64,000 bases of DNA from a virus. The notes beneath the pieces are model-generated. The model saw nothing but the letters and a program-made list of their open reading frames with translations, made no database searches and had not been told where the DNA came from. Position 1 is the stretch's first letter. Every line of letters begins with the position of its first letter. Shown here piece by piece: positions 41,590 to 63,560 of the stretch. The DNA lies in IMG/VR virus record IMGVR_UViG_3300037808_001516, positions 62,001 to 126,000 of that record; one strand, 5' to 3'. The position numbers were made by a program, and so were the translations under genes.

Positions 41590-42698
41590 GTGAAATTTTC
41601 CGAGGCGGAGCCACCAATAACTTTGCAGATGAATATAATGAAAAGGTAAAATACAGAAACTTTCTTCTTCAGTCCGGGTATAGCTTTTTGGACACTCTAT
41701 ATAAAGATACGTTGTATGGTTTTATTAATCGGTCGTATGATGTCATCGCTCCGGTCCCAGATACGACAACCTTTGGAGATTATTCTGCAAATGCGGAAGG
41801 GTTGGTTTACGTTGTAAATCAATTTAACGATTTCAGGACATACTACCTGGAGAAGGCAGCCCAGGGAAACTTCACTGTTCCTGCGCTTATCACCGACCTC
41901 TCTCCACGCGTCAGTTTTGAGGACTATGAGGTCAATTATTTCAGGTACTTGGACAGCTATAAGACATCGATGATACAGAAGGTCCCCACCGGCCGGAATA
42001 CTGCGCCCTTGGGTTTTGAGCCATTTGTAAGGTTTTGCCATCAGAAAATCTTTGAAATAGACATGTTAGGGCTTCCAGCTACGAAGTCTGGTTTTATGCT
42101 ATCAAACAGCGCGGATGTTTACAACACAGGCCTCTACATAGATATGAGGCAAACCCCTGCCCGGGCAGTGGATCAACAAAGAGCGGACTTCATATCGGAC
42201 GAAGGGTTTCCTTGTTTTATGGAGTTGGCAAATAAGTTTGGATTTTATGTTGATGGAAACTTCCCCTGGCGAATCGCGGTTAATCTCAATCACGAATATA
42301 CGATATCAAAATTGATGAATGGGCGCCCGACTCCTATGTTCCAAAACTTGTACTCAGACCAACACACCATGAAAGTCTGCTTAGATGACTACGACGCTAT
42401 AATCAGAATGTATAAAGAGATGTACGTCGCATACAGCGAACTCAGGGGCACTCCTGTTCTTAGCGGCTTTGCAGACACCGCACCCCCGAAGTTATTTTTG
42501 GAAACCCTTTTACTTCACAGGTTTAACGAGTTATCGATGATGAGGGATTACTCGGAAAACTCATATTTTAAAATAATTTTAAGAAATACTCTTGACATAT
42601 TCGACCGTTTCGGGTTAATATCTAATAGTGGAGCAATCGGATATATAGGTAACTTCTGTGCCCAACAGCTAAAAGATAAGATTTTAGGACAACAGTGA
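41586..42698 (+). CDS. baseplate-associated structural protein
   Basis: 370 residues, ATGA overlap. Mixed alpha/beta with a high content of Tyr/Phe (for example FVRFCHQKIFEIDML and YSDQHTMKVCLDDYDAI). No known motif. It is the last gene of the tail cluster, just before the mini polymerase, so it is likely a baseplate or tail accessory. Confidence 0.5.
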   Translation: MSEIFRGGATNNFADEYNEKVKYRNFLLQSGYSFLDTLYKDTLYGFINRSYDVIAPVPDTTTFGDYSANAEGLVYVVNQFNDFRTYYLEKAAQGNFTVPALITDLSPRVSFEDYEVNYFRYLDSYKTSMIQKVPTGRNTAPLGFEPFVRFCHQKIFEIDMLGLPATKSGFMLSNSADVYNTGLYIDMRQTPARAVDQQRADFISDEGFPCFMELANKFGFYVDGNFPWRIAVNLNHEYTISKLMNGRPTPMFQNLYSDQHTMKVCLDDYDAIIRMYKEMYVAYSELRGTPVLSGFADTAPPKLFLETLLLHRFNELSMMRDYSENSYFKIILRNTLDIFDRFGLISNSGAIGYIGNFCAQQLKDKILGQQ

Positions 42699-43825
42699 TA
42701 TTACAGACACTAGACATAAAAGACAATTGCAAGGGCATCTTTCACAAAGGTGCTTTTTTGCTTGAAGATACGCAGCCAGCCATATCCAATTATTCTGTGG
42801 CATGGAAGCACTCCTCTTTGTTAGATGACGAGAAGTTTCGTTATTTGTATCTTTCTCTGAAGAGCGATGATTTGTCCGGCTATTGTCATGATCCTCATAT
42901 ATTCTCGACATACAAAAAGAAAATGTCAGCACAACAAAAAGCTGCAATTGCAGCAAAGATAAGTCTACAGGACGAGTGCTTTTTCGACCTACTGCCAAAA
43001 CATCAACTTACAAGGTGGTTCCAGCTCCGACAACAGGCCTTGGAAAATCTACACAAGGTGTCCAAAATAGAAGATGATTATGACATCCTTCATAAGGCAC
43101 ATGTCCTGACTTCTGAGATTGGCCGCCAAGATTTAATGTTCGAGGGCAAGAAAGGCAGAGTTCAATACAACATCTTTGGCTCGGCAACAGGAAGACTGAC
43201 CACAAAGAAAGGTTCAGTGCCTATCATGACCCTAAAGAAGGAAGACAGGCACAAAATAACCCCTCAGAACGATGCTTTCGTGGAACTAGACTTAAACGCA
43301 GCAGAAGTAAGAACGCTAATGGCTCTATCAGGCCGAGAACAGCCGAAGGGGGACATTCATGAGTGGGTCGTGGAGAATGTGTTCAATGGAGAGATAGAGC
43401 GCTCAAAAGCAAAGGTAGAGCTGTTTGCGTGGTTGTATAATCCTTCGAGTTCGGAAAGTCGATTTGACGAATTTTTTTCGCGGCAAATTTTTCGAGATTT
43501 TTTTGCCCCTGAAGACCAGACGCTGAAAACTCCATTTGGCAGAGTCTTGGCGGTTGACGAAAGAAAAGCGCAAAACTACCTACTCCAATCGACGACATCA
43601 GATCAAGTACTTGAAAACGCGTACAAGATTATGAAGATGCTTAAGGGCAAAAAAAGCAAAATAGCATTTACACTACACGATTCGATTATTATTGACATGT
43701 GCAAAAAAGATGCTATAATGTTAAGAGACATAAAAAAACAGTTTGAAAAAACTCGATGGGGAAGTTTTATGAGCACATGCAAAATCGGTAAAACTTTCGC
43801 CGATCTAAAGGAGTTGAAGCTTTGA
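42695..43825 (+). CDS. compact family A DNA polymerase, polymerase domain only
   Basis: 376 residues from a GTG that overlaps the previous stop. Family A landmarks are in order: F-G-S-A-T-G-R-L at 161-168, motif A V-E-L-D-L-N-A-A-E (D199), a motif B-like R236-x3-K240-x3-F244-x3-Y248, the T-P-F-G-R at 279-283, and motif C H328-D329. Pol I is 928 residues; here both nuclease domains are absent and the fingers/thumb are short. Since a Pol III alpha is also encoded, this enzyme may do gap filling or repair, or priming-related synthesis. Motif B is less canonical, so activity is not certain. Confidence 0.85.
   Translation: MILQTLDIKDNCKGIFHKGAFLLEDTQPAISNYSVAWKHSSLLDDEKFRYLYLSLKSDDLSGYCHDPHIFSTYKKKMSAQQKAAIAAKISLQDECFFDLLPKHQLTRWFQLRQQALENLHKVSKIEDDYDILHKAHVLTSEIGRQDLMFEGKKGRVQYNIFGSATGRLTTKKGSVPIMTLKKEDRHKITPQNDAFVELDLNAAEVRTLMALSGREQPKGDIHEWVVENVFNGEIERSKAKVELFAWLYNPSSSESRFDEFFSRQIFRDFFAPEDQTLKTPFGRVLAVDERKAQNYLLQSTTSDQVLENAYKIMKMLKGKKSKIAFTLHDSIIIDMCKKDAIMLRDIKKQFEKTRWGSFMSTCKIGKTFADLKELKL
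43692..43719 (+). promoter_or_regulatory. strong sigma70 promoter ahead of the tubulin-like/R-M cassette
   Basis: TTGACA at 43692-43697, 16-base spacer, TATAAT at 43714-43719, with TGC before it (extended -10). All 12 hexamer bases match consensus. It lies in the last codons of the mini-polymerase gene, about 100 bases before the TTG at 43822. Confidence 0.75.
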
Positions 43826-44658
43826 AAAACATTTTGGGCATTGGAACCGCTGGCTGCAACATAGTAGAGCAGTTATCTGAATATCCTGTATACAAGTGCC
43901 ACCATATTTCAAATGAAATAAAAAAAACTTCGAAGTATAAGTTTGCGCTGACAGAGCTAGACGGCCCTGAAGAGTACGAGTCAATGGACATGTCCAAGTT
44001 GCACAAGTGGCTCTCGACAATCGAGAAGAATTGCACTGTGTTTCTGTGCGGAGCATCAAACTCGGCCGGCATCACGCTTCGGGCACTACATGTACTACAC
44101 CAGAGAGGTGTAAAAGTAGAGATAGTGTATTTCAGACCTGAAACAGAGGTCTTATCAGAGGAAAAAACTCTTTCTGAAAGGGCTTTCCGCGGCATTTTGC
44201 AAAATTATGCTCGAAGTGGTCTTTTTGAGGGTATGCGCCTTATTTGTAATCTCCGTCTGGAAGAGATTGCCGGGTCAACAAACGTGTTCGAATATTACAG
44301 TCAAATAAATCGAGTGTTCACAAACACCTATTATATGATAGATGTGTTTAAAAACACAAAACCAATCACGTCGACATTTAAGCGCCCAAAAGATTCTTGC
44401 AGGATATCAACAATAGGCCTCAGCGCTGTTGAGGGGGAAGAAAAGTTATTTTTTCCTTTCAATCAGGAGACGGAAGTGGTATACTATTATGGTATCAATG
44501 AAGAAAAGTTGAAAACTGAAGAGAACCTTTTCAGGACAATCACAGACAAAGTAAAAGAAAGAATAACAGATGAAACAAAAGTTTCATTTGGCATCTATCC
44601 AACGCAATATGAAGTAGATTACGTTTACGTGGAAAACTTCTCGCCAAAAATTCAATAA
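43822..44658 (+). CDS. tubulin/FtsZ-like GTPase-fold protein (divergent)
   Basis: 278 residues from TTG (AAGGAG eight bases upstream), overlapping the previous stop. The start I-L-G-I-G-T-A-G-C-N-I matches the first FtsZ glycine loop (G-x-G-G-x-G-x-N). Residues 73-107 (VFLCGASNSAGIT... then VKVEIVYFRPE) occupy the place of the tubulin signature loop GGGTGTG and the strand after it, and L-I-C-N-L-R-L-E-E-I mirrors the FtsZ V-I-P-N-D-R-L-L region. The signature loop is degenerate, so nucleotide binding may be altered. Phage tubulins (PhuZ) and TubZ move DNA or capsids. Role here unknown. Confidence 0.6.
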   Translation: MKNILGIGTAGCNIVEQLSEYPVYKCHHISNEIKKTSKYKFALTELDGPEEYESMDMSKLHKWLSTIEKNCTVFLCGASNSAGITLRALHVLHQRGVKVEIVYFRPETEVLSEEKTLSERAFRGILQNYARSGLFEGMRLICNLRLEEIAGSTNVFEYYSQINRVFTNTYYMIDVFKNTKPITSTFKRPKDSCRISTIGLSAVEGEEKLFFPFNQETEVVYYYGINEEKLKTEENLFRTITDKVKERITDETKVSFGIYPTQYEVDYVYVENFSPKIQ

Positions 44659-44665
44659 GGGACAC

Positions 44666-45355
44666 ATGTTTCAAGCAAATATTTCAGATCTACGTTCAGA
44701 TCGACAGAAGCTTAATTATAATCTAGCTATCGATTCGAAATTCGAAAAAGGTGTAAACCCAGAGGCCCTCAATCGACTGTGTGAATACCTTAGCATGACA
44801 AAGGAAGAGGTGGTATTGAAAGCATCTCGTGACGAGGCTTTTGAAAAGACCGTTGCTATGTATGTCTCGATAAACGCTAGTAGGCAAGGTACAAAAGACG
44901 AAGCGTTCATTGTCCAAGGTATTTCTCGTGAGGTTAAGAAATATGGTATCGATATTAGAAACTATACCACTAACGAAAAGGTGCCAATCCGAGAGAGCAG
45001 CCAGGTCTTGCCAAGATCGCAAGCTAAAAAGAAACACGACAGTCATCTTTTGATGAAATCATTTGACTTTGGCGGTAAGATATGTGATAATAGGAGAATA
45101 GAAGGTTTTGCAAAAGTATGCCTTGGGTCAGGAGGACACCAGGATAACGTATTTCACGAAGCTTCTGAATTCATGAAATGGGCTTCAGAATACGGCAGCA
45201 AAAACACAATCTATACCGTTTTGATTGACACCGATCAAGAGAAAATTTTCAACAACTTAAAGAATCTAGAAGAAGAATTAGGAAAACAAAATTTATGGGT
45301 AGCAAGCCACAGAGAACTCCAAGAAAGATTAATCTCTCTAAAAAACGAGAACTAG
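44666..45355 (+). CDS. candidate restriction endonuclease
   Basis: 229 residues. The gene overlaps the DNA methyltransferase by 61 bases. Two blocks stand out: I-N-A-S-R-Q-G-T-K-D-E near residue 75, and G-F-A-K-V-C-L-G-S-G-G-H-Q-D-N-V-F-H-E near residue 170. Both are the kind of polar, Gly/Asp/Glu/Lys-containing blocks I associate with PD-(D/E)xK-type restriction enzymes encoded next to their methyltransferase, but I cannot place the catalytic triad firmly. If correct, the enzyme cuts DNA not modified by the neighbour. Alternatives: a DNA-binding partner of the methyltransferase. Confidence 0.45.
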   Translation: MFQANISDLRSDRQKLNYNLAIDSKFEKGVNPEALNRLCEYLSMTKEEVVLKASRDEAFEKTVAMYVSINASRQGTKDEAFIVQGISREVKKYGIDIRNYTTNEKVPIRESSQVLPRSQAKKKHDSHLLMKSFDFGGKICDNRRIEGFAKVCLGSGGHQDNVFHEASEFMKWASEYGSKNTIYTVLIDTDQEKIFNNLKNLEEELGKQNLWVASHRELQERLISLKNEN

Positions 45356-46449
45356 GCCAATTCTATACTACGAAGTACGACTACATCTTAGAAGGCATGA
45401 GTATTCCTGCGCGATCCAAGGTTATCGAGCCTTTCGTAGGAGCAGGGGACCTTTGCCTATGGGCACACCAGAATGGAGTTGATGTAAGCGAGGTAGAGTG
45501 TTATGATATTGACCCACCATCGACTCTACGACTTGAGTTTGATATTCTAGTTCGCGACACTCTGAAGAGTCCGCCTGATTATGACAACAAATTCATATTA
45601 ACCAATCCGCCATTTCTTGCAAAAAACAAGGCTAAGCAGTCGGGATACGAAGATATATTTACTCGATGGGCTACAAATGATTTGTATAAATGCTTTTTGG
45701 AGTCTTTGATTGAGCAGGATCCTGCAGGTGGCGTGGTGATTTTGCCTCTTAATTTTTTCTGTGATGATAGAAAAGTCGAAACGAGAGATAGGTTCATTAA
45801 TAAGTTTTCTATAAAGAGGGTCAACATTTTCGAGGAACAGGTGTTTGCAGATACGACGTATACCATTTGTTCAGTCGAATTTGAGAAAAGGTCCAGTCCT
45901 GTCCTTCCTGTTATAGACATAGACACTTATATTTATCCAAGAAGAGAAAATATCAAGATGTCCGTTTCTAGCTCCACGAAGTGGAAGGTAGGTTCAGAAG
46001 TACTCGCACGGAAGCAGAGTGAGTATAAAGTTTCTAGATTGACCCATTCAATGGTGTTTGATGATTGTGTTAGGAATAAGACCTTAAATCCAGAAAAAGA
46101 AAATAAAGTCACAAATATCTTGCTAAAATGTGTTGATGGTGGTAAGATGGATTCTAGAATAAAGTTGGAGTGGAACAAAGTGCCTCTTTTGGCAAAAGAT
46201 ACTGACAGAGCTTTCTGTACTGTTGTTATCGACCCGCCAATCTCCAACAAAAAACAAAAAAAACTTATTGACAAATTTAACAAAAAGTTAGAAAATTATA
46301 GAAGCAAATATAACAGTCTGTTTTTGGTGAACTATAGAAACTCATCAAAATCATATGCAAGAAAGAGAATGTCTTTTGACATAGCATTTAACTTAATCAA
46401 AGAATGTCTAAACGAGTTAGACAAGAAGGAGAAAAAAAATGAGCAATGA
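45295..46449 (+). CDS. N6-adenine DNA methyltransferase (Eco57I/TaqI-like)
   Basis: 384 residues. Motif X (G-Q-F-Y-T-T, 21-26), motif I (I-E-P-F-V-G-A-G, 44-51), the acidic C-Y-D-I-D-P (69-74), and the catalytic N-P-P-F (104-107) are all present, the gamma-class order of amino-methyltransferases. The start at 45295 is needed to keep motif X. Residues 200-384 would be the target recognition domain. The enzyme moves a methyl from S-adenosylmethionine to adenine. It could protect phage DNA or pair with the upstream candidate nuclease as a restriction-modification system. Confidence 0.85.
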   Translation: MGSKPQRTPRKINLSKKRELGQFYTTKYDYILEGMSIPARSKVIEPFVGAGDLCLWAHQNGVDVSEVECYDIDPPSTLRLEFDILVRDTLKSPPDYDNKFILTNPPFLAKNKAKQSGYEDIFTRWATNDLYKCFLESLIEQDPAGGVVILPLNFFCDDRKVETRDRFINKFSIKRVNIFEEQVFADTTYTICSVEFEKRSSPVLPVIDIDTYIYPRRENIKMSVSSSTKWKVGSEVLARKQSEYKVSRLTHSMVFDDCVRNKTLNPEKENKVTNILLKCVDGGKMDSRIKLEWNKVPLLAKDTDRAFCTVVIDPPISNKKQKKLIDKFNKKLENYRSKYNSLFLVNYRNSSKSYARKRMSFDIAFNLIKECLNELDKKEKKNEQ

Positions 46450-48172
46450 TCATTTTGTGGGAATACCAAGTATTCACCTACTGAAAACATATGAAAACAA
46501 GAAATATCCAAATATATATGCAGCATTAGAGGAATACATCGACAATTGTTTTGATGCTTTCGAGAGAGTGTATTTTGAGGAGACAAAATTCCTCAAGCCG
46601 CCAACAATCACTTTCTCTCTAGGTGGAGATAGTATTGTAATAGGAGATAACGCCTCAGGAATGGACCAGGAACAATTAAAGACAGCCTTAAGGCTTGGGG
46701 ACTCGGGAACAGATAAGTTTGGACTTCAAGACTCTTTAGGTATGTTTGGTTGCGGCGCCTCATCAGCCGCTTTGACTGTTGGGGAATCTCTTGAATTTCT
46801 GACAAAGACCAAAGAAGGAGATTTGCTTTATGGTGCACTAGATCCAGATTATATTCAAAAGCATGGCAATTGGGCTTACCCCCTTCGACAGGGGTCTGAA
46901 GCAGAAGGGGTCGTGTTTGAGAATATTCTCGGTACCGACACGGAGTCTGGAACGGTAGCATCTGTACGTGGTCTTGCGGAGGCCCCAAAGAATAGGACCA
47001 ACTTCTACAGCACCTTGAAGACCAAGATTAGAACTAGATATAGTCATAAATTTATGAACCTAAAACAACAAGGCAGAGAGGTTTCGTTTAAATTCTTAAA
47101 GGGTGACAGTAGGAACTTTAACGCCACGGAGAACGTTGTCGACGTCCTGTGTGATGAGGATGCGAGTAAAACTAAATTCTTTAAAAATTTCGGTGGTCCA
47201 AACTGTGATGTGTCATGGATAAACGTTTTTGGGTGCCAGGTTGGTGTAAGGGCTTCATTTACTGAAAGTTATGACGCTCACCTCTCAAACAAGCGAGAAA
47301 AGGGAACTTCTGAAAATTACTGGGGATACGGAATTAATGTAAATCAGAAGCAGGGAATATACTTTTACAGAAATGGAAAATTGTTGGAGACCAGGAGCGG
47401 AGACCCTATTTGGAAGTATCACGGCGCGCTCCGAGGACTGTTGGTCGAGATCCACATAACCGAAGACCTTATTGAAAAAGGACTTGTAAAAATCGCACAA
47501 GAGAAAACTTCAGTTATCTTAAGTGAAGAGCTTAAGAAGGAGATGAAGAGGATCTTTCAACCAATCACGACTAAAGTCCGAGGATTGCGAGAGAGCGAGT
47601 CCAGCCAAAGTGTGCACCTAACGGACGAACAGGAAAAACAAAAGGCTGCAGCTACCGTAGAGGGAATTGGCAGGGCCCTGAAGACCAAGAGGAAAGAAAC
47701 TAAAGGATCTGATTCTTCTTCATCATTAAGCGAGGTTATCAAACAAACTTCTAGAAAAAACAAAAGCTATGTTGGATCTGGAGACAAGGTAGAGGTAACA
47801 AAGTCTAACAAAAAGCAGAGTGACTTTGATTACAAGTGGGTCAACCAGACTAGATCAAAGACTACCCCGTTTTGGATTGAGTATACCAACCCGGAGGCAT
47901 CTGTTGACAAAATCAACACTTCTAAAACAATTGTCCTCAATCAGGCACACCCAATGATGGGGGAGTTGAAAAACGCGAACCTGACTCACACAGCTATTAT
48001 TCTAGCAGTGGCAATTGCTTACGGGATAAACAAGGACAATGATTTCTCTACGGAAGAGTTTGAGGAGACAGCTCATGGCATCGGAGAGATAGCTTTGAAA
48101 ATCATGGACAGCATGAAACCAATAACCAAGACAGAAGAAAAATCATTTAAAGTTTTAGCAAATAATGCTTGA
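46439..48172 (+). CDS. GHKL (MORC/MutL-type) ATPase
   Basis: 577 residues, overlapping the methyltransferase by 11 bases, SD GGAG. The Bergerat fold is clear: N-box E-E-Y-I-D-N-C-F-D-A (31-40), G1 D-N-A-S-G-M (70-75) and G2 G-L-Q-D-S-L-G-M-F-G-C-G-A-S-S (95-109). The remainder lacks histidine kinase, MutL endonuclease or Hsp90 domains and has a charged, Ser-rich linker near 400-450. MORC-like GHKL ATPases occur beside restriction enzymes and methyltransferases in bacterial defence loci (Iyer, Abhiman and Aravind). An ATP-driven DNA clamp or conformational switch acting with the two upstream proteins is my inference. Confidence 0.8.
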   Translation: MSNDHFVGIPSIHLLKTYENKKYPNIYAALEEYIDNCFDAFERVYFEETKFLKPPTITFSLGGDSIVIGDNASGMDQEQLKTALRLGDSGTDKFGLQDSLGMFGCGASSAALTVGESLEFLTKTKEGDLLYGALDPDYIQKHGNWAYPLRQGSEAEGVVFENILGTDTESGTVASVRGLAEAPKNRTNFYSTLKTKIRTRYSHKFMNLKQQGREVSFKFLKGDSRNFNATENVVDVLCDEDASKTKFFKNFGGPNCDVSWINVFGCQVGVRASFTESYDAHLSNKREKGTSENYWGYGINVNQKQGIYFYRNGKLLETRSGDPIWKYHGALRGLLVEIHITEDLIEKGLVKIAQEKTSVILSEELKKEMKRIFQPITTKVRGLRESESSQSVHLTDEQEKQKAAATVEGIGRALKTKRKETKGSDSSSSLSEVIKQTSRKNKSYVGSGDKVEVTKSNKKQSDFDYKWVNQTRSKTTPFWIEYTNPEASVDKINTSKTIVLNQAHPMMGELKNANLTHTAIILAVAIAYGINKDNDFSTEEFEETAHGIGEIALKIMDSMKPITKTEEKSFKVLANNA

Positions 48173-48197
48173 CGCAAACAATGAAATCTGATATTAT
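48169..48197 (+). promoter_or_regulatory. sigma70 promoter for SSB
   Basis: TTGACG at 48169-48174, 17-base spacer, TATTAT at 48192-48197, overlapping the stop of the GHKL gene and 80 bases before the SSB start. Ten of twelve bases match consensus. Confidence 0.7.
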
Positions 48198-48207
48198 ATA
48201 AACAGTT

Positions 48208-48227
48208 GGTCAGGATATTTGCTGACC
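48208..48227 (+). promoter_or_regulatory. inverted repeat in the SSB leader
   Basis: GGTCAG (48208-48213) and CTGACC (48222-48227) with 8 bases between, about 10 bases after the predicted start of transcription. T4 gp32 represses its own translation by binding a structured leader, so this may be an autogenous control site, or an operator. Confidence 0.4.
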
Positions 48228-48277
48228 TGCTATAGCCAAACGTGCAAAAAAACAACATACCATAGGAGGTAATAACA

Positions 48278-49036
48278 ATGGCACTTAATTTAGACGCTAT
48301 GAAAGCGAAACTCGATAAACTTAACGGAAAGGGAGACGGAAAGAAAAACTTCTGGCGACCAGAGGACGGAGAAAGCAATATCCGTATCGTTTCCACGAAG
48401 GACGGCGACCCGTTCAAGGAAAAGTTCTTCCACTACGGTGTTGGTGGTCAATCTTTTCTCTGCCCAAAGCGCAACTTTGGGGATGACTGCCCAACCTGCA
48501 ACTTCGCCAACAAGCTTTGGAATGAAGGCACAGAGGATAGTAAAAAGCAAGCAAAGGAGATGTTTGCAAAGCAACGTTTCTTTTCCCCGGTTCTTGTCCG
48601 AGGTGAAGAAGCAGAAGGCATTCGAGTTTGGGGATACGGCAAGATGGCTTATGAAAAGCTTCTTACAATCGTCCTTGACCCTGACTATGGTGATATCACA
48701 GACCCTGAGAATGGCAACGACCTGAAGTTGATGTACGGCAAGCTGCCTGGTGCTAGTTTCCCTCGCACCGACATTCGACCTCGGCCTCGAAAGACTGTTC
48801 TTTGTGATGATGCTGTCGGTGGAGACGACCGATGCGCAGAGCTTTTGGAGACCATTCCAAACTTTGATGAAATCTTTGAGCGCAAGACAACTGAAGAAGT
48901 TCAGTCTATTATGGACCAGTTCCTTTCAGGAGACACTGGAAATTCAGAGGTAGAAAAGTTCGGTGGCAGTAATACCACTTCTACCACGTCTTCGGACTCG
49001 GTGGAGAATGCATTCAACGATTTGTTGAATCAGTAG
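48278..49036 (+). CDS. single-stranded DNA-binding protein (T4 gp32-like)
   Basis: 252 residues, strong SD AGGAGGT. A zinc module H52, C62, C71, C74 (HYGVGG then CPKRN then CPTC) corresponds to the gp32 H-x-C-x-C-x2-C site. The early K-x-N-F-W-R-P motif and the Ser/Thr/Asp-rich acidic tail ending in S-V-E-N-A-F-N-D-L-L are typical: gp32 tails recruit replication proteins. It coats single strands during replication and recombination. Followed by RecA, as the pair would be co-expressed. Confidence 0.88.
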   Translation: MALNLDAMKAKLDKLNGKGDGKKNFWRPEDGESNIRIVSTKDGDPFKEKFFHYGVGGQSFLCPKRNFGDDCPTCNFANKLWNEGTEDSKKQAKEMFAKQRFFSPVLVRGEEAEGIRVWGYGKMAYEKLLTIVLDPDYGDITDPENGNDLKLMYGKLPGASFPRTDIRPRPRKTVLCDDAVGGDDRCAELLETIPNFDEIFERKTTEEVQSIMDQFLSGDTGNSEVEKFGGSNTTSTTSSDSVENAFNDLLNQ

Positions 49037-51218: not shown

Positions 51219-52595
51219 ATGGAACAAGATACAAGCTTCTCCAAATTTGGTAAGTCTTTTCAGGAAGACCTATGCCACATGATTTTGAACGACCGTCCAT
51301 TCGCGGACCAAATGTTCGAAGTCTTAGACATTAACTTTTTGGAACTGAAGCACTTGAGAGTGTTCATCCAGAAGATACAGGACTACAGAAAAAGATACGG
51401 TGTACACCCAACCTCTAAGATTATGCTATCGGTCATCCGAACAGGGTTAGACAGCGAGCCAGAGTCGGTCAAGACTAGAATCAGGGACTATTACGCCCGA
51501 GTACTAGCCAATGGTCAGGAACCAGACGCGGTTGAATACATCAAGGACACAGCGCTGGATTTCTGTAAGAAGCAGAAACTAAAGGGTGCTTTGATAAAGT
51601 CGGTTGAACTAATTAAATCGTCTTCCTTCGACGAGGTGTCTAAAGTTATCGACGATGCTCTCAAATTAGGTTCAGACAATACAATGGGTTATGATTATAT
51701 TGCGGACTTCGAGGCGAGATTTCTCAAGAAAGCAAGAGACCCAGTAACAACAGGGTGGGCAGATATTGATGACATTTCTAAGGGAGGTCTTGGTAAAGGG
51801 GAGCTTGGCGTTGTTGTGGCTCCTACTGGTGCAGGCAAATCAATGGTCCTCGTACATCTTGGGGCGCAGGCAGTCAAGGCCGGCAAAAATGTACTACACT
51901 ACACATTGGAACTTGGTGACACTATTGTTGCTGGTCGTTATGACGCTGCTATTACTGGCGTTGAACTGAAAAATCTAGCAGTTTTCAAAGAGAAGATTTA
52001 TGATGAGATAAAAGATGTTCAAGGTAGGCTCATCGTCAAGGAATATCCCACCAGAAGCGCTAATATCCAAACAATCAAAAACCACATTGAGAAGCTAAAA
52101 CGCCGAGATTTCGTCCCAGACATGATCATCGTGGACTACGGAGACCTAATTCGACCAGAAAATGGCGGAAAAGATGAGAAAAGACACCAACTCGAAACTA
52201 TTTACGAAGAGCTAAGAGGATTGGCTCAAATTTGCGAGTGTCCACTCTGGACAGCATCGCAAACAAACAGGTCCGGACTGAATGCTGAAGTGATTACCAT
52301 GGAATCGATTTCGGAGGCATTCAACAAATGCTTTGTAGCAGATTTTATCTTTACCGTCTCTAGAACGGTGGAGGACAAGAACAATAACACTGGTCGTATC
52401 TTCGTAGCGAAGAATAGGAACGGCCCGGATGGACTCGTGTATCCTTTGTTCATGGATACCAGCAGCGTGACCATCAAAGTCCTGTCTCAGACAGGTGAAA
52501 CAGTAAATGATATAATTCAAAAATCTTCGAAGGACAGGTTAGATGCTTTGAAGGAAAAATACCAAGTATTCAAGAAAGAAGGAGGAAAGAAATAA
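51219..52595 (+). CDS. replicative DNA helicase (DnaB/T4 gp41-like)
   Basis: 458 residues. Walker A A-P-T-G-A-G-K-S at 201-208, Walker B M-I-I-V-D-Y-G-D near 304-311, and the S-Q-T-N-R-S motif mark a RecA-fold hexameric helicase. The N-terminal 150 residues are helical, as in DnaB and gp41. It unwinds the fork and binds primase (4373). Its TATACT at 51191-51196 lacks a good -35, so I do not count it as a promoter. It abuts the reductase gene. Confidence 0.9.
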   Translation: MEQDTSFSKFGKSFQEDLCHMILNDRPFADQMFEVLDINFLELKHLRVFIQKIQDYRKRYGVHPTSKIMLSVIRTGLDSEPESVKTRIRDYYARVLANGQEPDAVEYIKDTALDFCKKQKLKGALIKSVELIKSSSFDEVSKVIDDALKLGSDNTMGYDYIADFEARFLKKARDPVTTGWADIDDISKGGLGKGELGVVVAPTGAGKSMVLVHLGAQAVKAGKNVLHYTLELGDTIVAGRYDAAITGVELKNLAVFKEKIYDEIKDVQGRLIVKEYPTRSANIQTIKNHIEKLKRRDFVPDMIIVDYGDLIRPENGGKDEKRHQLETIYEELRGLAQICECPLWTASQTNRSGLNAEVITMESISEAFNKCFVADFIFTVSRTVEDKNNNTGRIFVAKNRNGPDGLVYPLFMDTSSVTIKVLSQTGETVNDIIQKSSKDRLDALKEKYQVFKKEGGKK

Positions 52596-59952: not shown

Positions 59953-60136
59953 AGAAACGTATGAGCTAGTGCCGTCAATAATCAAGGAACATGCAGGCCT
60001 ACCCGACTCATTTAAAGACTTGACAAATGACCAGGAAAGGTTTATAATGGAGATGTTCCAAATTGATAGAGAAGTGGTAAAAGCCACATTGCTAGAAACA
60101 GTAGAAGAAATGAAAGAATTAGTGAATGACATCTAA
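59939..60136 (+). CDS. small helical protein before the polymerase
   Basis: 65 residues, overlapping the previous gene by 14 bases and the polymerase gene by 11. Acidic and entirely helical, with no family recognised. The consensus promoter at 60020 lies within it. Confidence 0.5.
   Translation: MNKIEETYELVPSIIKEHAGLPDSFKDLTNDQERFIMEMFQIDREVVKATLLETVEEMKELVNDI
60020..60048 (+). promoter_or_regulatory. perfect consensus sigma70 promoter for the DNA polymerase
   Basis: TTGACA at 60020-60025, exactly 17 bases, TATAAT at 60043-60048. All twelve hexamer bases match consensus. It lies about 80 bases before the polymerase ATG, inside the preceding small gene. Confidence 0.8.
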
Positions 60137-63100
60137 AACAACCAGTAATATCCCCTTCGTAGGATTACATGCCCACTCAGTTGCGGGCTCTCCATTTGAC
60201 GCTCTCGGCTATCCACCAGAGCACATGGACTTTGCCTATGAAAATGGTATGGACGCACTTGCGCTTACCGACCATGGTAATATGAATGGCCTAGCTTGGC
60301 AGGTTCTCCACGCAAAGAAGATGAAGAAGGAAGGTAAAGAGTTCAAGCCAATCTTCGGTTGTGAGGCTTACTTTATTCCATCTGTTGCGAAGTGGAAAGA
60401 AGAGTATGAGGAAATCAAAGCAGCCTCCAAGAAGAAGTCTGACTACGAAGCAGACAACTCTGGGACCACAGTGGAAGACGAGGGCTCTTCTAAAAAGCGT
60501 ATCAAGTCTGTTCTCAACAGAAGACGACATCTTATCTTGCTGGCACAAAACCAGACAGGTTTGCAGAACATCTTCAAAATGATTTCCAAGTCCTATACCA
60601 ATGATAACTTTTATCGTTATCCTCGTGTTGATTACGCCATGCTTAAGAAGCACAATGAAGGTGTCATCGCAGCTTCAGCTTGTCTTGGTGGTGTCTATGC
60701 TGGGAACTACTGGGAGAACCGAGACACTGGCCCCGACGCCATATTGGGAGCGATGCGACAAACAACACAGAAGATGCAATCTATCTTCGGTGATCGATGG
60801 TATGGTGAACTGCAGTGGAATAACGTTCCGGAGCAGCACGACCTCAACCAATACATTATCCAGATGCACCAAGAGTTTGGTATTGAACTTATCTCAACCG
60901 CTGATTCGCACTACTATAATGCAGACGTCTGGAAAGACCGTGAGCTTTATAAACGATTAGGTTGGCTAGGTAAAGGTAAGCCGGACTACTTATCAGACGA
61001 GCTTCCGCTTTCCGTTGAAGAAGTTGGCTACGAATTGTATCCAAAGAACGGAGACCAGATGTTCGAATCTTACAAGAAATACTCAGAAGAGTGCGGAGTA
61101 AAGTATGATGACAAATTGGTTCTCGACTCAATCACCAGAACGCACCAGATTGCGCACGAAAGGATTGAGACATTCCTACCAGACAACACGGTTCGGCTAC
61201 CGGACTTCGTTGTCCCAGAGGGATCGACTGCTGGTCAAACCTTGGCTGCCCTCTGTGTTGAGGGTCTTCGGTCCCTTGACCTCCATACAAACCAGGAGTA
61301 TGTGGATCGCCTCAAGCATGAAGTTAGCGTCATCGAAGAGAGGGGTTTCTCCAAGTATTTCTTGACCATGAAGTCTATCGCTGACGTTGCGGTAGAAAAG
61401 CAGCTGGTCGGCGCAGGACGAGGTTCTGCCGCCGGCTCACTGGTAGCGTACGTTCTAAACATCACCCAGGTCAACCCTATCAAGTATGGGCTTCAGTTCG
61501 AAAGATTCCTAACTAAGGGCGGCGCAGGCTACCCAGACATTGACTATGATGTATCTGACCCGATGGTCCTCAAGGAAATTCTTATTGACCAATGGGGCGA
61601 CAACTCTGTTGTACCCATCACCAATTGGAACACACTTCAGTTGCGTTCGCTCATCAAAGACATCTCAAAGTTCTACGGTATTGACTTCCAAGAAGCAAAC
61701 AATGTAACTAGTAAGATGGTTTATGAGGCAACCCCTCGGGCCAAGGCAAAGCATGGTATTACATCTGGTGTGTATGCTCCCACATTTGAGGAGTTGGTCG
61801 AGTATTCAGAGTCCTTACAGGGTTTCTTGGAAAAGTATCCGAACATCAGAACTCATATCGAGAAACTGTATGGACAAACGCGTTCTGCTTCTCGACATGC
61901 TGGCGGTGTTGTTGTAGGTGAGAACCTAGACCAGTGGATGCCACTTATCAACTCAGGAGGAGTTCGACAAACACCATGGTCCGAGGGTATGAACGTAAGA
62001 CACTTGGAGCCAATGGGTTTCATCAAGTTTGATATCTTGGGTCTTGCTTCACTTCGCATGCTGGAGGGCGCCATCGAGCGTATCCTCAAACGTCATCACG
62101 GAATGGAGAACCCTACATTTGCGGACATCAAAGATTTCTACGACAAGAACTTACACCCAGAGAAGATTGACTTGGATGATAAAGAAGTTTGGGAGAATGT
62201 CTTTCACAAGGGTAAGTGGGCAGGTATCTTCCAGTTCACAGAGACCGGCGCTCAATCGTTCTGCAAGAATGCTAAGCCAGATAACATCATTGACTTGTCG
62301 GCTATCACTTCTATCTATCGACCAGGTCCACTAGGTGCGGGAGTAGACAGAAAGTACATCGGAGCAAAGTCAAATCCAGAGGACGTGGAATACGTCAACA
62401 AGCATGTGCGAGAAGTAACAGAAGAAACATACGGCTTCCTTATTTTTCAGGAGCAGATTGCTATGTTGGCTCACAAGTTAGGCAAGGACTTATCCCTGGA
62501 TGAAGGTAATAAGCTCAGAAAACTACTTACTAAGAAGGGTACTGGTGAAGTCCAGGCTCAGAAAGACAAAATCTTTGACAAGTTCAAGCGCGGATGCTTG
62601 GAGAAAGGAATGAAAGATTATGAAGCTAGAGAACTTTGGGAAACATTTGAGTACTTTTCAGGCTACGGCTTTAATAAATCTCACGCTGTATCCTATTGTG
62701 TGCTCTCTTATCAGTGTGCTTATCTTCTTAACTACTATCCATCGGAATGGCTAGCAGCCTTCTTGGATAAAGAGCCGGAGACAAGAAAAGAAAGAGCAAT
62801 CGCAACAGCTAAGTCGCTTGGTTACAACGTAGAGCAACTCAACGTAAATACGTCAGGTGTCGGCTGGGAAATCAGCGATGATGGAAAGACTTTGATTCAA
62901 CCCCTGTCCTCCATCAAAGGACTGGGCATCAAAGCTATCGAGCAAATCATCGAGCACAGACCGTTCAACACTATTGAGGAGTTCTTGTTCCACCCGAAGA
63001 TTACTTACTCTAAACTAAATAAGAAGTCCATCACCGCTCTGTGTCTTTCCCAGGCCCTGAGCACATTACAAGACGACAGGTTCTCCGGTATGCAGCACTT

Positions 63101-63560
63101 TTATGCTGCTGTCGCAAATGACCGACCAAGGAAGGAGAAGAACCTGGATGAGAACATAGAGAGATATGAGCCAGAGGGTGACTTTTCCGAAGAAGAAAAG
63201 CTAGAGTATCTCGTCAATCTTACTGGCGTGTTCCCAATCAACGCAGTGGTTACACCAAGAGTAAGGCAGAAGCTGAACGAACTATATGTTCCGCCTATTT
63301 CAGAGTTCGACCCTGAATTAGGTGTGACCTGGTTTATCCCTAGGGAATGCATACTAAAGAAATCAAAGAACGGCAAGAACTTTTACGTGGTAAAGGTGAT
63401 TGATGACAACAACGAGATGACAACTATCCGATGCTGGGGTGTAGATCCCAAGAAAGATATTGTCCAAATCAACCGGCCTTATATGGCCAGACTAAACTAT
63501 AATCAACAGTGGGGATTTTCCACATTCAGTATGAGAAAAATGTTCAAGCTATTAGCATAA
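60126..63560 (+). CDS. DNA polymerase III alpha subunit (C-family replicase)
   Basis: 1144 residues. An N-terminal PHP domain starts at once (L-H-A-H-S at 13-17, L-T-D-H-G-N near 46-51, T-A-D-S-H later). The palm holds A-G-R-G-S-A-A-G-S-L (about 431) and the catalytic P-D-I-D-Y-D (about 470), then R-P-G-P-L-G and G-Y-G-F-N-K-S-H-A-V-S-Y. E. coli DnaE is 1160 residues, so this is full length. It would be the phage replicase in place of the B-family gp43 of T4. No DnaQ-type proofreading subunit, clamp or clamp loader is present in the window. Confidence 0.95.
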   Translation: MTSKTTSNIPFVGLHAHSVAGSPFDALGYPPEHMDFAYENGMDALALTDHGNMNGLAWQVLHAKKMKKEGKEFKPIFGCEAYFIPSVAKWKEEYEEIKAASKKKSDYEADNSGTTVEDEGSSKKRIKSVLNRRRHLILLAQNQTGLQNIFKMISKSYTNDNFYRYPRVDYAMLKKHNEGVIAASACLGGVYAGNYWENRDTGPDAILGAMRQTTQKMQSIFGDRWYGELQWNNVPEQHDLNQYIIQMHQEFGIELISTADSHYYNADVWKDRELYKRLGWLGKGKPDYLSDELPLSVEEVGYELYPKNGDQMFESYKKYSEECGVKYDDKLVLDSITRTHQIAHERIETFLPDNTVRLPDFVVPEGSTAGQTLAALCVEGLRSLDLHTNQEYVDRLKHEVSVIEERGFSKYFLTMKSIADVAVEKQLVGAGRGSAAGSLVAYVLNITQVNPIKYGLQFERFLTKGGAGYPDIDYDVSDPMVLKEILIDQWGDNSVVPITNWNTLQLRSLIKDISKFYGIDFQEANNVTSKMVYEATPRAKAKHGITSGVYAPTFEELVEYSESLQGFLEKYPNIRTHIEKLYGQTRSASRHAGGVVVGENLDQWMPLINSGGVRQTPWSEGMNVRHLEPMGFIKFDILGLASLRMLEGAIERILKRHHGMENPTFADIKDFYDKNLHPEKIDLDDKEVWENVFHKGKWAGIFQFTETGAQSFCKNAKPDNIIDLSAITSIYRPGPLGAGVDRKYIGAKSNPEDVEYVNKHVREVTEETYGFLIFQEQIAMLAHKLGKDLSLDEGNKLRKLLTKKGTGEVQAQKDKIFDKFKRGCLEKGMKDYEARELWETFEYFSGYGFNKSHAVSYCVLSYQCAYLLNYYPSEWLAAFLDKEPETRKERAIATAKSLGYNVEQLNVNTSGVGWEISDDGKTLIQPLSSIKGLGIKAIEQIIEHRPFNTIEEFLFHPKITYSKLNKKSITALCLSQALSTLQDDRFSGMQHFYAAVANDRPRKEKNLDENIERYEPEGDFSEEEKLEYLVNLTGVFPINAVVTPRVRQKLNELYVPPISEFDPELGVTWFIPRECILKKSKNGKNFYVVKVIDDNNEMTTIRCWGVDPKKDIVQINRPYMARLNYNQQWGFSTFSMRKMFKLLA

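What the first reader, a model, noticed from the sequence alone, without database searches (positions are those of the whole stretch)
43692..48172. Tubulin-like, candidate nuclease, adenine methyltransferase and GHKL ATPase in one overlapping cassette with its own promoter
Four genes overlap or abut (43822, 44666, 45295, 46439) behind a 12/12-match extended -10 promoter (43692-43719). The methyltransferase and GHKL motifs are clear, and the second gene has restriction-enzyme-like blocks. MutL/MORC-like GHKL ATPases are known partners of restriction-modification systems in bacterial defence loci (Iyer, Abhiman and Aravind). Adding a tubulin-fold protein to such a set is, to my knowledge, not described. 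It could be a phage-borne weapon against rival phages or the host chromosome.
Basis: partly seen in the sequence, partly recalled or inferred. Interest (0 to 1): 0.88.

Follow-up and report, generated by a model that had tools for sequence, protein, structure and literature searches.

The report
Phage restriction-modification cargo beside tubulin-fold gene
An uncultured, probably marine phage carries a DNA-cutting and DNA-marking enzyme pair (predicted site GTNAC) and an ATPase in a swappable gene slot, next to a conserved tubulin-fold gene that turns out to belong to the phage's own replication genes rather than to that cassette.

Summary
The four genes and the promoter are real, but they are not one cassette. 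The 43822 protein has a tubulin/FtsZ fold (model pLDDT 92.5; Foldseek E 1.7e-12 to FtsZ, TM 0.7). It is a core gene lying between a PolA-type polymerase and SSB in every relative where the slot could be read. The promoter belongs to this core gene. REase, MTase and GHKL are cargo in a hypervariable slot between it and SSB. That slot is empty in most relatives; elsewhere it holds other MTases, PvuII-like or other nucleases, ParB-like proteins or a lone GHKL. REase and MTase form a conserved pair, also found in T4-like cyanophages. GTNAC is depleted in this phage (0.71 in the window, 0.62 in the rest of the genome) and in most cyanophages with the REase, but in none of 15 phages without it (0.90-1.14). 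I therefore predict a Type II R-M system that methylates and cuts GTNAC, isospecific with MaeIII. The GHKL is MORC-like and occurs without the R-M pair in at least one relative, so partnership is unproven. The novel part is the reduced tubulin-fold family: no matches in the isolate phages or cellular genomes searched, and apparently lacking the usual T7/H8 element.

The parts
43692..43719 (+). promoter TTGACA-N16-TATAAT with extended -10, inside the 3' end of the PolA-type gene; core promoter of the tubulin-fold gene
   Evidence: hexamers kept in relatives with an empty slot
43822..44658 (+). tubulin/FtsZ-fold core protein, 278 aa, TTG start; flanks the cargo slot but is not part of the cargo
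   Evidence: AlphaFold pLDDT 92.5; Foldseek to FtsZ 1.7e-12; conserved between polymerase and SSB
44666..45355 (+). Type II restriction endonuclease, PD-(D/E)XK-like; putative active site D134, K150, E165 (motif inference); predicted target GTNAC
   Evidence: phrog_18366 2e-46; invariant residues; fold; site depletion
45295..46449 (+). cognate N6-adenine methyltransferase; GQFYTT (motif X), EPFVGAG (motif I), NPPF (motif IV)
   Evidence: Pfam N6_Mtase, phrog_18657; homologous to the MTase beside the REase in cyanophages
46439..48172 (+). MORC-like GHKL ATPase, 577 aa; all four ATP-binding motifs present; separate cargo
   Evidence: PF13589 3e-12; motifs and relative L031; occurs in the same slot without R-M
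48169..48197 (+). SSB promoter TTGACG-N17-TATTAT, marks the 3' end of the cargo slot
   Evidence: same element directly after the tubulin-fold gene in relatives with an empty slot
42695..43825 (+). PolA-family polymerase, upstream core neighbour
   Evidence: Pfam DNA_pol_A 4e-10; synteny
48278..49036 (+). SSB, downstream core neighbour
   Evidence: phrog_1192 1.5e-23; synteny

Best explanation
The locus is a hypervariable cargo slot between two core replication-module genes, a tubulin-fold protein and SSB, of an uncultured tailed phage. Here the slot holds a complete Type II R-M pair plus a MORC-like GHKL ATPase, arranged in tandem with the upstream core genes and probably co-transcribed with them. 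The MTase is predicted to put m6A on GTNAC in the phage's own replicating DNA. The REase is predicted to cut GTNAC in unmethylated DNA, that is the host chromosome or a competing phage. SHOWN: gene identities, slot architecture, the conserved REase-MTase pair, and GTNAC depletion that tracks the REase. INFERRED: enzyme activity, cut site and methylated base, the biological target, and expression. The tubulin-fold protein works for the phage independently of the cargo, presumably in organising replication or cell division. The GHKL most likely acts on DNA by itself or assists DNA cutting; its partner is unknown.
For: REase: phrog_18366 2e-46; AlphaFold model pLDDT 85.8 with PspGI (prob 0.97) and BstEII (prob 0.96) as matches. 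All 34 REase loci with readable downstream sequence carry the homologous MTase, including this virus's own contig. GTNAC o/e is 0.71 in the window, 0.62 in the rest of the genome (Poisson P 1e-8, tested after the idea came from the window), and 0.90-1.14 in 15 phages without the REase; R+ below R-, Mann-Whitney P 5e-7, not corrected for relatedness. GTNAC is the most depleted of 82 palindromes against relatives. Slot: mostly empty, or filled with other MTases, nucleases, ParB-like proteins or GHKL. Tubulin-fold gene present in all 57 recA-anchored loci where the slot's upstream side is visible.
Against: Foldseek matches of the REase are modest (best E 1.3e-3, TM 0.34-0.47). Pfam Tsp45I is below its cutoff. 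GTNAC depletion could also reflect a host R-M system with the same site. P-SSM4 (0.89), L118 and L119 carry the REase with little or no GTNAC depletion; in P-SSM3 and P-SSM4 only GTWAC is depleted. The R+ set is not phylogenetically independent. The three-gene set is seen in a single lineage (this virus and one contig identical to it).
Confidence: 0.78

Rival explanations
1. All three cargo genes form one functional system: a MORC-like GHKL clamps or remodels DNA and licenses the nuclease, as proposed for MORC/paraMORC R-M operons.
For: Tandem genes with 61 and 11 nt overlaps. MORC and paraMORC GHKL proteins occur in R-M operons, a minority of them without a helicase (PMC2292703). The GHKL also matches MzaB of the MZA defence system weakly.
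Against: GHKL relatives sit in the same slot without the R-M pair (L031 alone; L034 directly after the tubulin-fold gene). REase-MTase pairs elsewhere lack GHKL. Gene overlap is common throughout this genome.
Confidence: 0.2
2. A four-part weapon including the tubulin-fold protein.
For: Adjacency and a shared upstream promoter.
Against: The tubulin-fold gene and its promoter are present in relatives with an empty slot. The R-M pair in cyanophages has no tubulin-fold neighbour in its annotated surroundings.
Confidence: 0.03
3. The MTase is only an anti-restriction shield; the REase is decayed or silent, and GTNAC depletion reflects host R-M pressure.
For: Complete R-M systems are reported as nearly absent from virulent phages, while solitary MTases are common (PMC4176335). 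Other MTases are frequent in the slot.
Against: The REase is intact with all putative catalytic residues invariant in 25 homologues, and depletion tracks carriage of the REase in two unrelated phage groups.
Confidence: 0.15

Closest known systems
MaeIII R-M system (GTNAC, m6A) of Methanococcus aeolicus, and Tsp45I (GTSAC)
   Same: Predicted recognition site and methylated base type: M.MaeIII gives m6A at GTNAC (PMC10113651). Weak Pfam Tsp45I similarity of the REase.
   Different: Phage-borne; homology to MaeIII was not tested here; neighbouring GHKL; specificity here is only inferred from site depletion.
REase-MTase pair of T4-like cyanophages (S-RSM4, S-H38, P-SSM4, P-SSM3, ACG-2014e/i)
   Same: Homologous REase (30-37%) followed by a homologous MTase; GTNAC or GTWAC depletion in these genomes.
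   Different: Different phage group and genomic site; often a different gene lies between REase and MTase; no GHKL.
MORC / paraMORC GHKL ATPases in R-M operons (Iyer, Abhiman and Aravind 2008)
   Same: GHKL plus a downstream region with a near match to the MORC S5 motif; neighbouring adenine MTase and REase.
   Different: No SFII helicase; the MORC signature arginine is Lys (GIYFYRNGKLL); relatives occur without R-M.
PhuZ / TubZ / FtsZ
   Same: Tubulin/FtsZ fold; T1-like GxGxAGxN loop.
   Different: 278 aa; T4 loop CGASNSAG instead of GGGTG(S/T)G; the model has no helix in the H8 position and no NxDxxD; non-jumbo phages (records up to about 190 kb); core gene beside polymerase and SSB.

Membership tests
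Type II restriction-modification system | REase with nuclease fold and conserved catalytic residues | tested here: met
   phrog_18366 2e-46; invariant D134, K150, E165; fold matches PspGI and BstEII, prob 0.97 and 0.96 but low TM; D..K..E arrangement rather than the classical (D/E)xK
Type II restriction-modification system | adjacent cognate methyltransferase | tested here: met
   conserved REase-then-MTase order in 34 of 34 readable loci, the own contig included
Type II restriction-modification system | REase and MTase share a recognition site | tested here: inconclusive
   GTNAC depletion tracks the REase; methylation itself not testable
MORC GHKL ATPase | four GHKL ATP-binding motifs | tested here: met
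   EYIDN, DNASGM, LGMFGCGASS and Pfam HATPase_c_3
MORC GHKL ATPase | GhXhhpXXRhl motif in the S5 domain | tested here: not met
   GIYFYRNGKLL here and GISFIRNGKRV in L031: Arg replaced by Lys; a distant plasmid relative (Priestia) has GIYFYREGRMV
MORC R-M operon | SFII helicase in the neighbourhood (about 70% of cases) | tested here: not met
   no helicase gene in the slot; DnaB-like helicase at 51219 is a core replication gene
Tubulin/FtsZ superfamily | tubulin/FtsZ fold | tested here: met
Tubulin/FtsZ superfamily | T1 and T4 nucleotide-binding loops | tested here: inconclusive
   T1 GIGTAGCN conserved; T4 degenerate, CGASNSAG (family CGAGxISG)
Tubulin/FtsZ superfamily | catalytic T7 loop NxDxxD with helix H8 | tested here: not met
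   MIDVFKN in the window, MINVFKN in the family; the model shows no helix between 177 and 227; no residue-level structural superposition made

The most novel reading that the evidence does not exclude
The core tubulin-fold family is a reduced tubulin (no T7/H8 half) that cannot treadmill on its own. It caps or co-assembles with host FtsZ, or forms a small scaffold, to hold the phage replication site, while the slot beside it serves as the phage's swappable arsenal of R-M and GHKL systems.
Probability: 0.15. Interest if true: 0.85.

Novelty: new variant of a known kind. Interest (0 to 1): 0.6.

Why it matters
Complete R-M systems were reported as nearly absent from virulent phages (PMC4176335). 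Here one is shared between unrelated phages, with a recognition site predictable from the genome alone and testable in one methylome run. The tubulin-fold family extends phage tubulins beyond nucleus-forming jumbo phages, into the replication core of a group with no match among the isolate phage genomes searched. The slot between it and SSB is a ready place to look for further phage-borne defence genes.

Tried and rejected
GHKL relatives in bacterial genomes: none by pattern scan; one weak plasmid relative (Priestia, 23%) whose locus was unannotated and read only as ORFs, with no R-M operon recognised. Tubulin-fold relatives in INPHARED and in bacterial genomes: none. Sequence-profile comparison with FtsZ and PhuZ: not significant; only structure shows the relation. 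PADLOC and NCBIfam gave no confident system. An apparent loss of the tubulin-fold gene in L197 was an artefact: that contig starts inside another R-M cargo. An RNA family search of the locus found nothing convincing. A pseudoknot in the SSB leader was considered by eye and dropped.

Full report
OBSERVATION. The four ORFs and the 12/12 promoter are present at the stated coordinates. The window is bases 62001-126000 of a 143,905-base virus record encoding a large terminase, portal, major head protein and contractile-tail sheath, hence a myovirus-like tailed phage.

THE TUBULIN-FOLD GENE IS CORE. A search with the 43822 protein returned 79 viral loci. In the loci that reach far enough, it lies between a PolA-type polymerase and SSB-UvsX/RecA-FEN-DnaB (names). 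Because that sample is biased, I anchored a second one on the recA gene: 57 of 58 loci with visible space upstream of SSB carry it. The single exception is a contig that begins inside another cargo. AlphaFold on a 40-sequence alignment gave pLDDT 92.5; Foldseek matches are FtsZ at E 1.7e-12 with TM about 0.7, and three phage FtsZ or tubulin entries in BFVD. No relatives were found in 50,697 phage records or by pattern scan of 85,000 bacterial and archaeal genomes. The T1 loop is conserved, the T4 loop is degenerate, and the T7 motif and helix H8 appear to be missing (from alignment and secondary structure, not superposition).

THE PROMOTER IS CORE TOO. The -35 and -10 hexamers are kept in about ten of 18 aligned relatives, including relatives whose slot is empty. 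A second promoter and a conserved leader precede SSB and remain directly downstream of every inserted cargo examined.

THE SLOT. Between the tubulin-fold gene and SSB, 55 TUB-anchored loci have only a short gap. Others carry: Dam-like MTase with ParB-like gene; ParB-like alone; Eco57I-type MTase with a 210-aa partner; MTase with an HNH-like gene; PvuII-like nuclease; GHKL alone; an R-M set with an ECK-motif nuclease (the ParB-like and ECK-motif names are my reading of sequence). This is a hotspot for DNA-modification and DNA-cutting cargo. The window's set (REase, MTase, GHKL) is seen only in this virus and one identical contig.

THE R-M PAIR. The 44666 protein matches phrog_18366 'restriction endonuclease II' at 2e-46. 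Its relatives are in T4-like cyanophages and 35 further viral contigs. All 34 loci with readable downstream sequence, the own contig included, carry the homologous MTase next, sometimes after one extra gene. D134, K150 and E165 are invariant, and in the model lie on a strand-strand-helix core as expected of the PD-(D/E)XK family; the catalytic roles are inferred. Foldseek: PspGI, EcoT38I, BstEII, MunI, with modest scores.

PREDICTED SITE. The REase has weak Pfam similarity to Tsp45I (GTSAC) and a fold match to BstEII (GGTNACC; that site is from general knowledge), which suggested counting GTNAC. In the window GTNAC is at 0.71 of expectation. Tests on other data: rest of the same genome 0.62, Poisson P 1.4e-8; phages with the REase mostly 0.00-0.65, with P-SSM4 0.89, L118 0.85, L119 0.91 and L107 0.79 as exceptions; 15 phages without it 0.90-1.14; Mann-Whitney P 5e-7, not corrected for relatedness. 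Against its own relatives, GTNAC is the most changed of 82 palindromes. P-SSM3 and P-SSM4, whose REases are a divergent subgroup, are depleted in GTWAC only. M.MaeIII is the known m6A GTNAC enzyme (PMC10113651).

THE GHKL. All four ATP-binding motifs are present. The MORC S5 signature is nearly matched but has Lys for Arg, so I call it MORC-like and not a MORC. Relatives lie in the same slot in L031, L034 and L198; L031 has no R-M pair there or elsewhere in its 74.6-kb record. Iyer et al. describe GHKL proteins in R-M operons, mostly with helicases (PMC2292703).

CONCLUSION. A phage-borne Type II R-M system with predicted specificity GTNAC, plus an independent MORC-like ATPase, occupies a cargo slot beside a conserved reduced tubulin-fold gene. 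The R-M reading is well supported by comparative evidence; activity, target and GHKL partnership are inferred. The most original element is the tubulin-fold core family, whose function is open.

Noticed in passing
window 48200-48277: SSB mRNA leader has a stem-loop (GGTCAGGATATTTGCTGACC) kept in 24 aligned relatives, with compensatory changes at two pairs; possibly an autoregulatory operator like that of T4 gene 32.
   Followed up: partly
window 60126-63560: A DnaE-like DNA polymerase III alpha subunit is encoded in addition to the PolA-type gene at 42695-43825, which is short (376 aa); a second perfect TTGACA-TATAAT promoter lies at 60020-60048 just upstream.
   Followed up: no
whole window and close relatives: CTCGAG, GAGCTC and CACGTG are almost absent (0 in the window; 4 seen against about 63 expected in close relatives), suggesting avoidance of a host restriction system.
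   Followed up: no
window: GATC is at 0.65 of expectation in the window and 0.88 in the rest of the genome.
   Followed up: no
L197 1-2800; L206 2352-2903; L181 4565-5128; L032 10843-11418: Other nuclease or R-M cargos in the same slot: ECK-motif nuclease with MTase and ParB-like gene; lone nuclease-like ORF; PvuII-like nucleases without an adjacent MTase in the slot.
   Followed up: partly
L084, L085 and their genomes (P-SSM4, P-SSM3): Depletion limited to GTWAC (27/85 and 21/79) while GTSAC is not depleted or is enriched (103/61 and 54/50), suggesting a specificity change within the REase family.
   Followed up: partly
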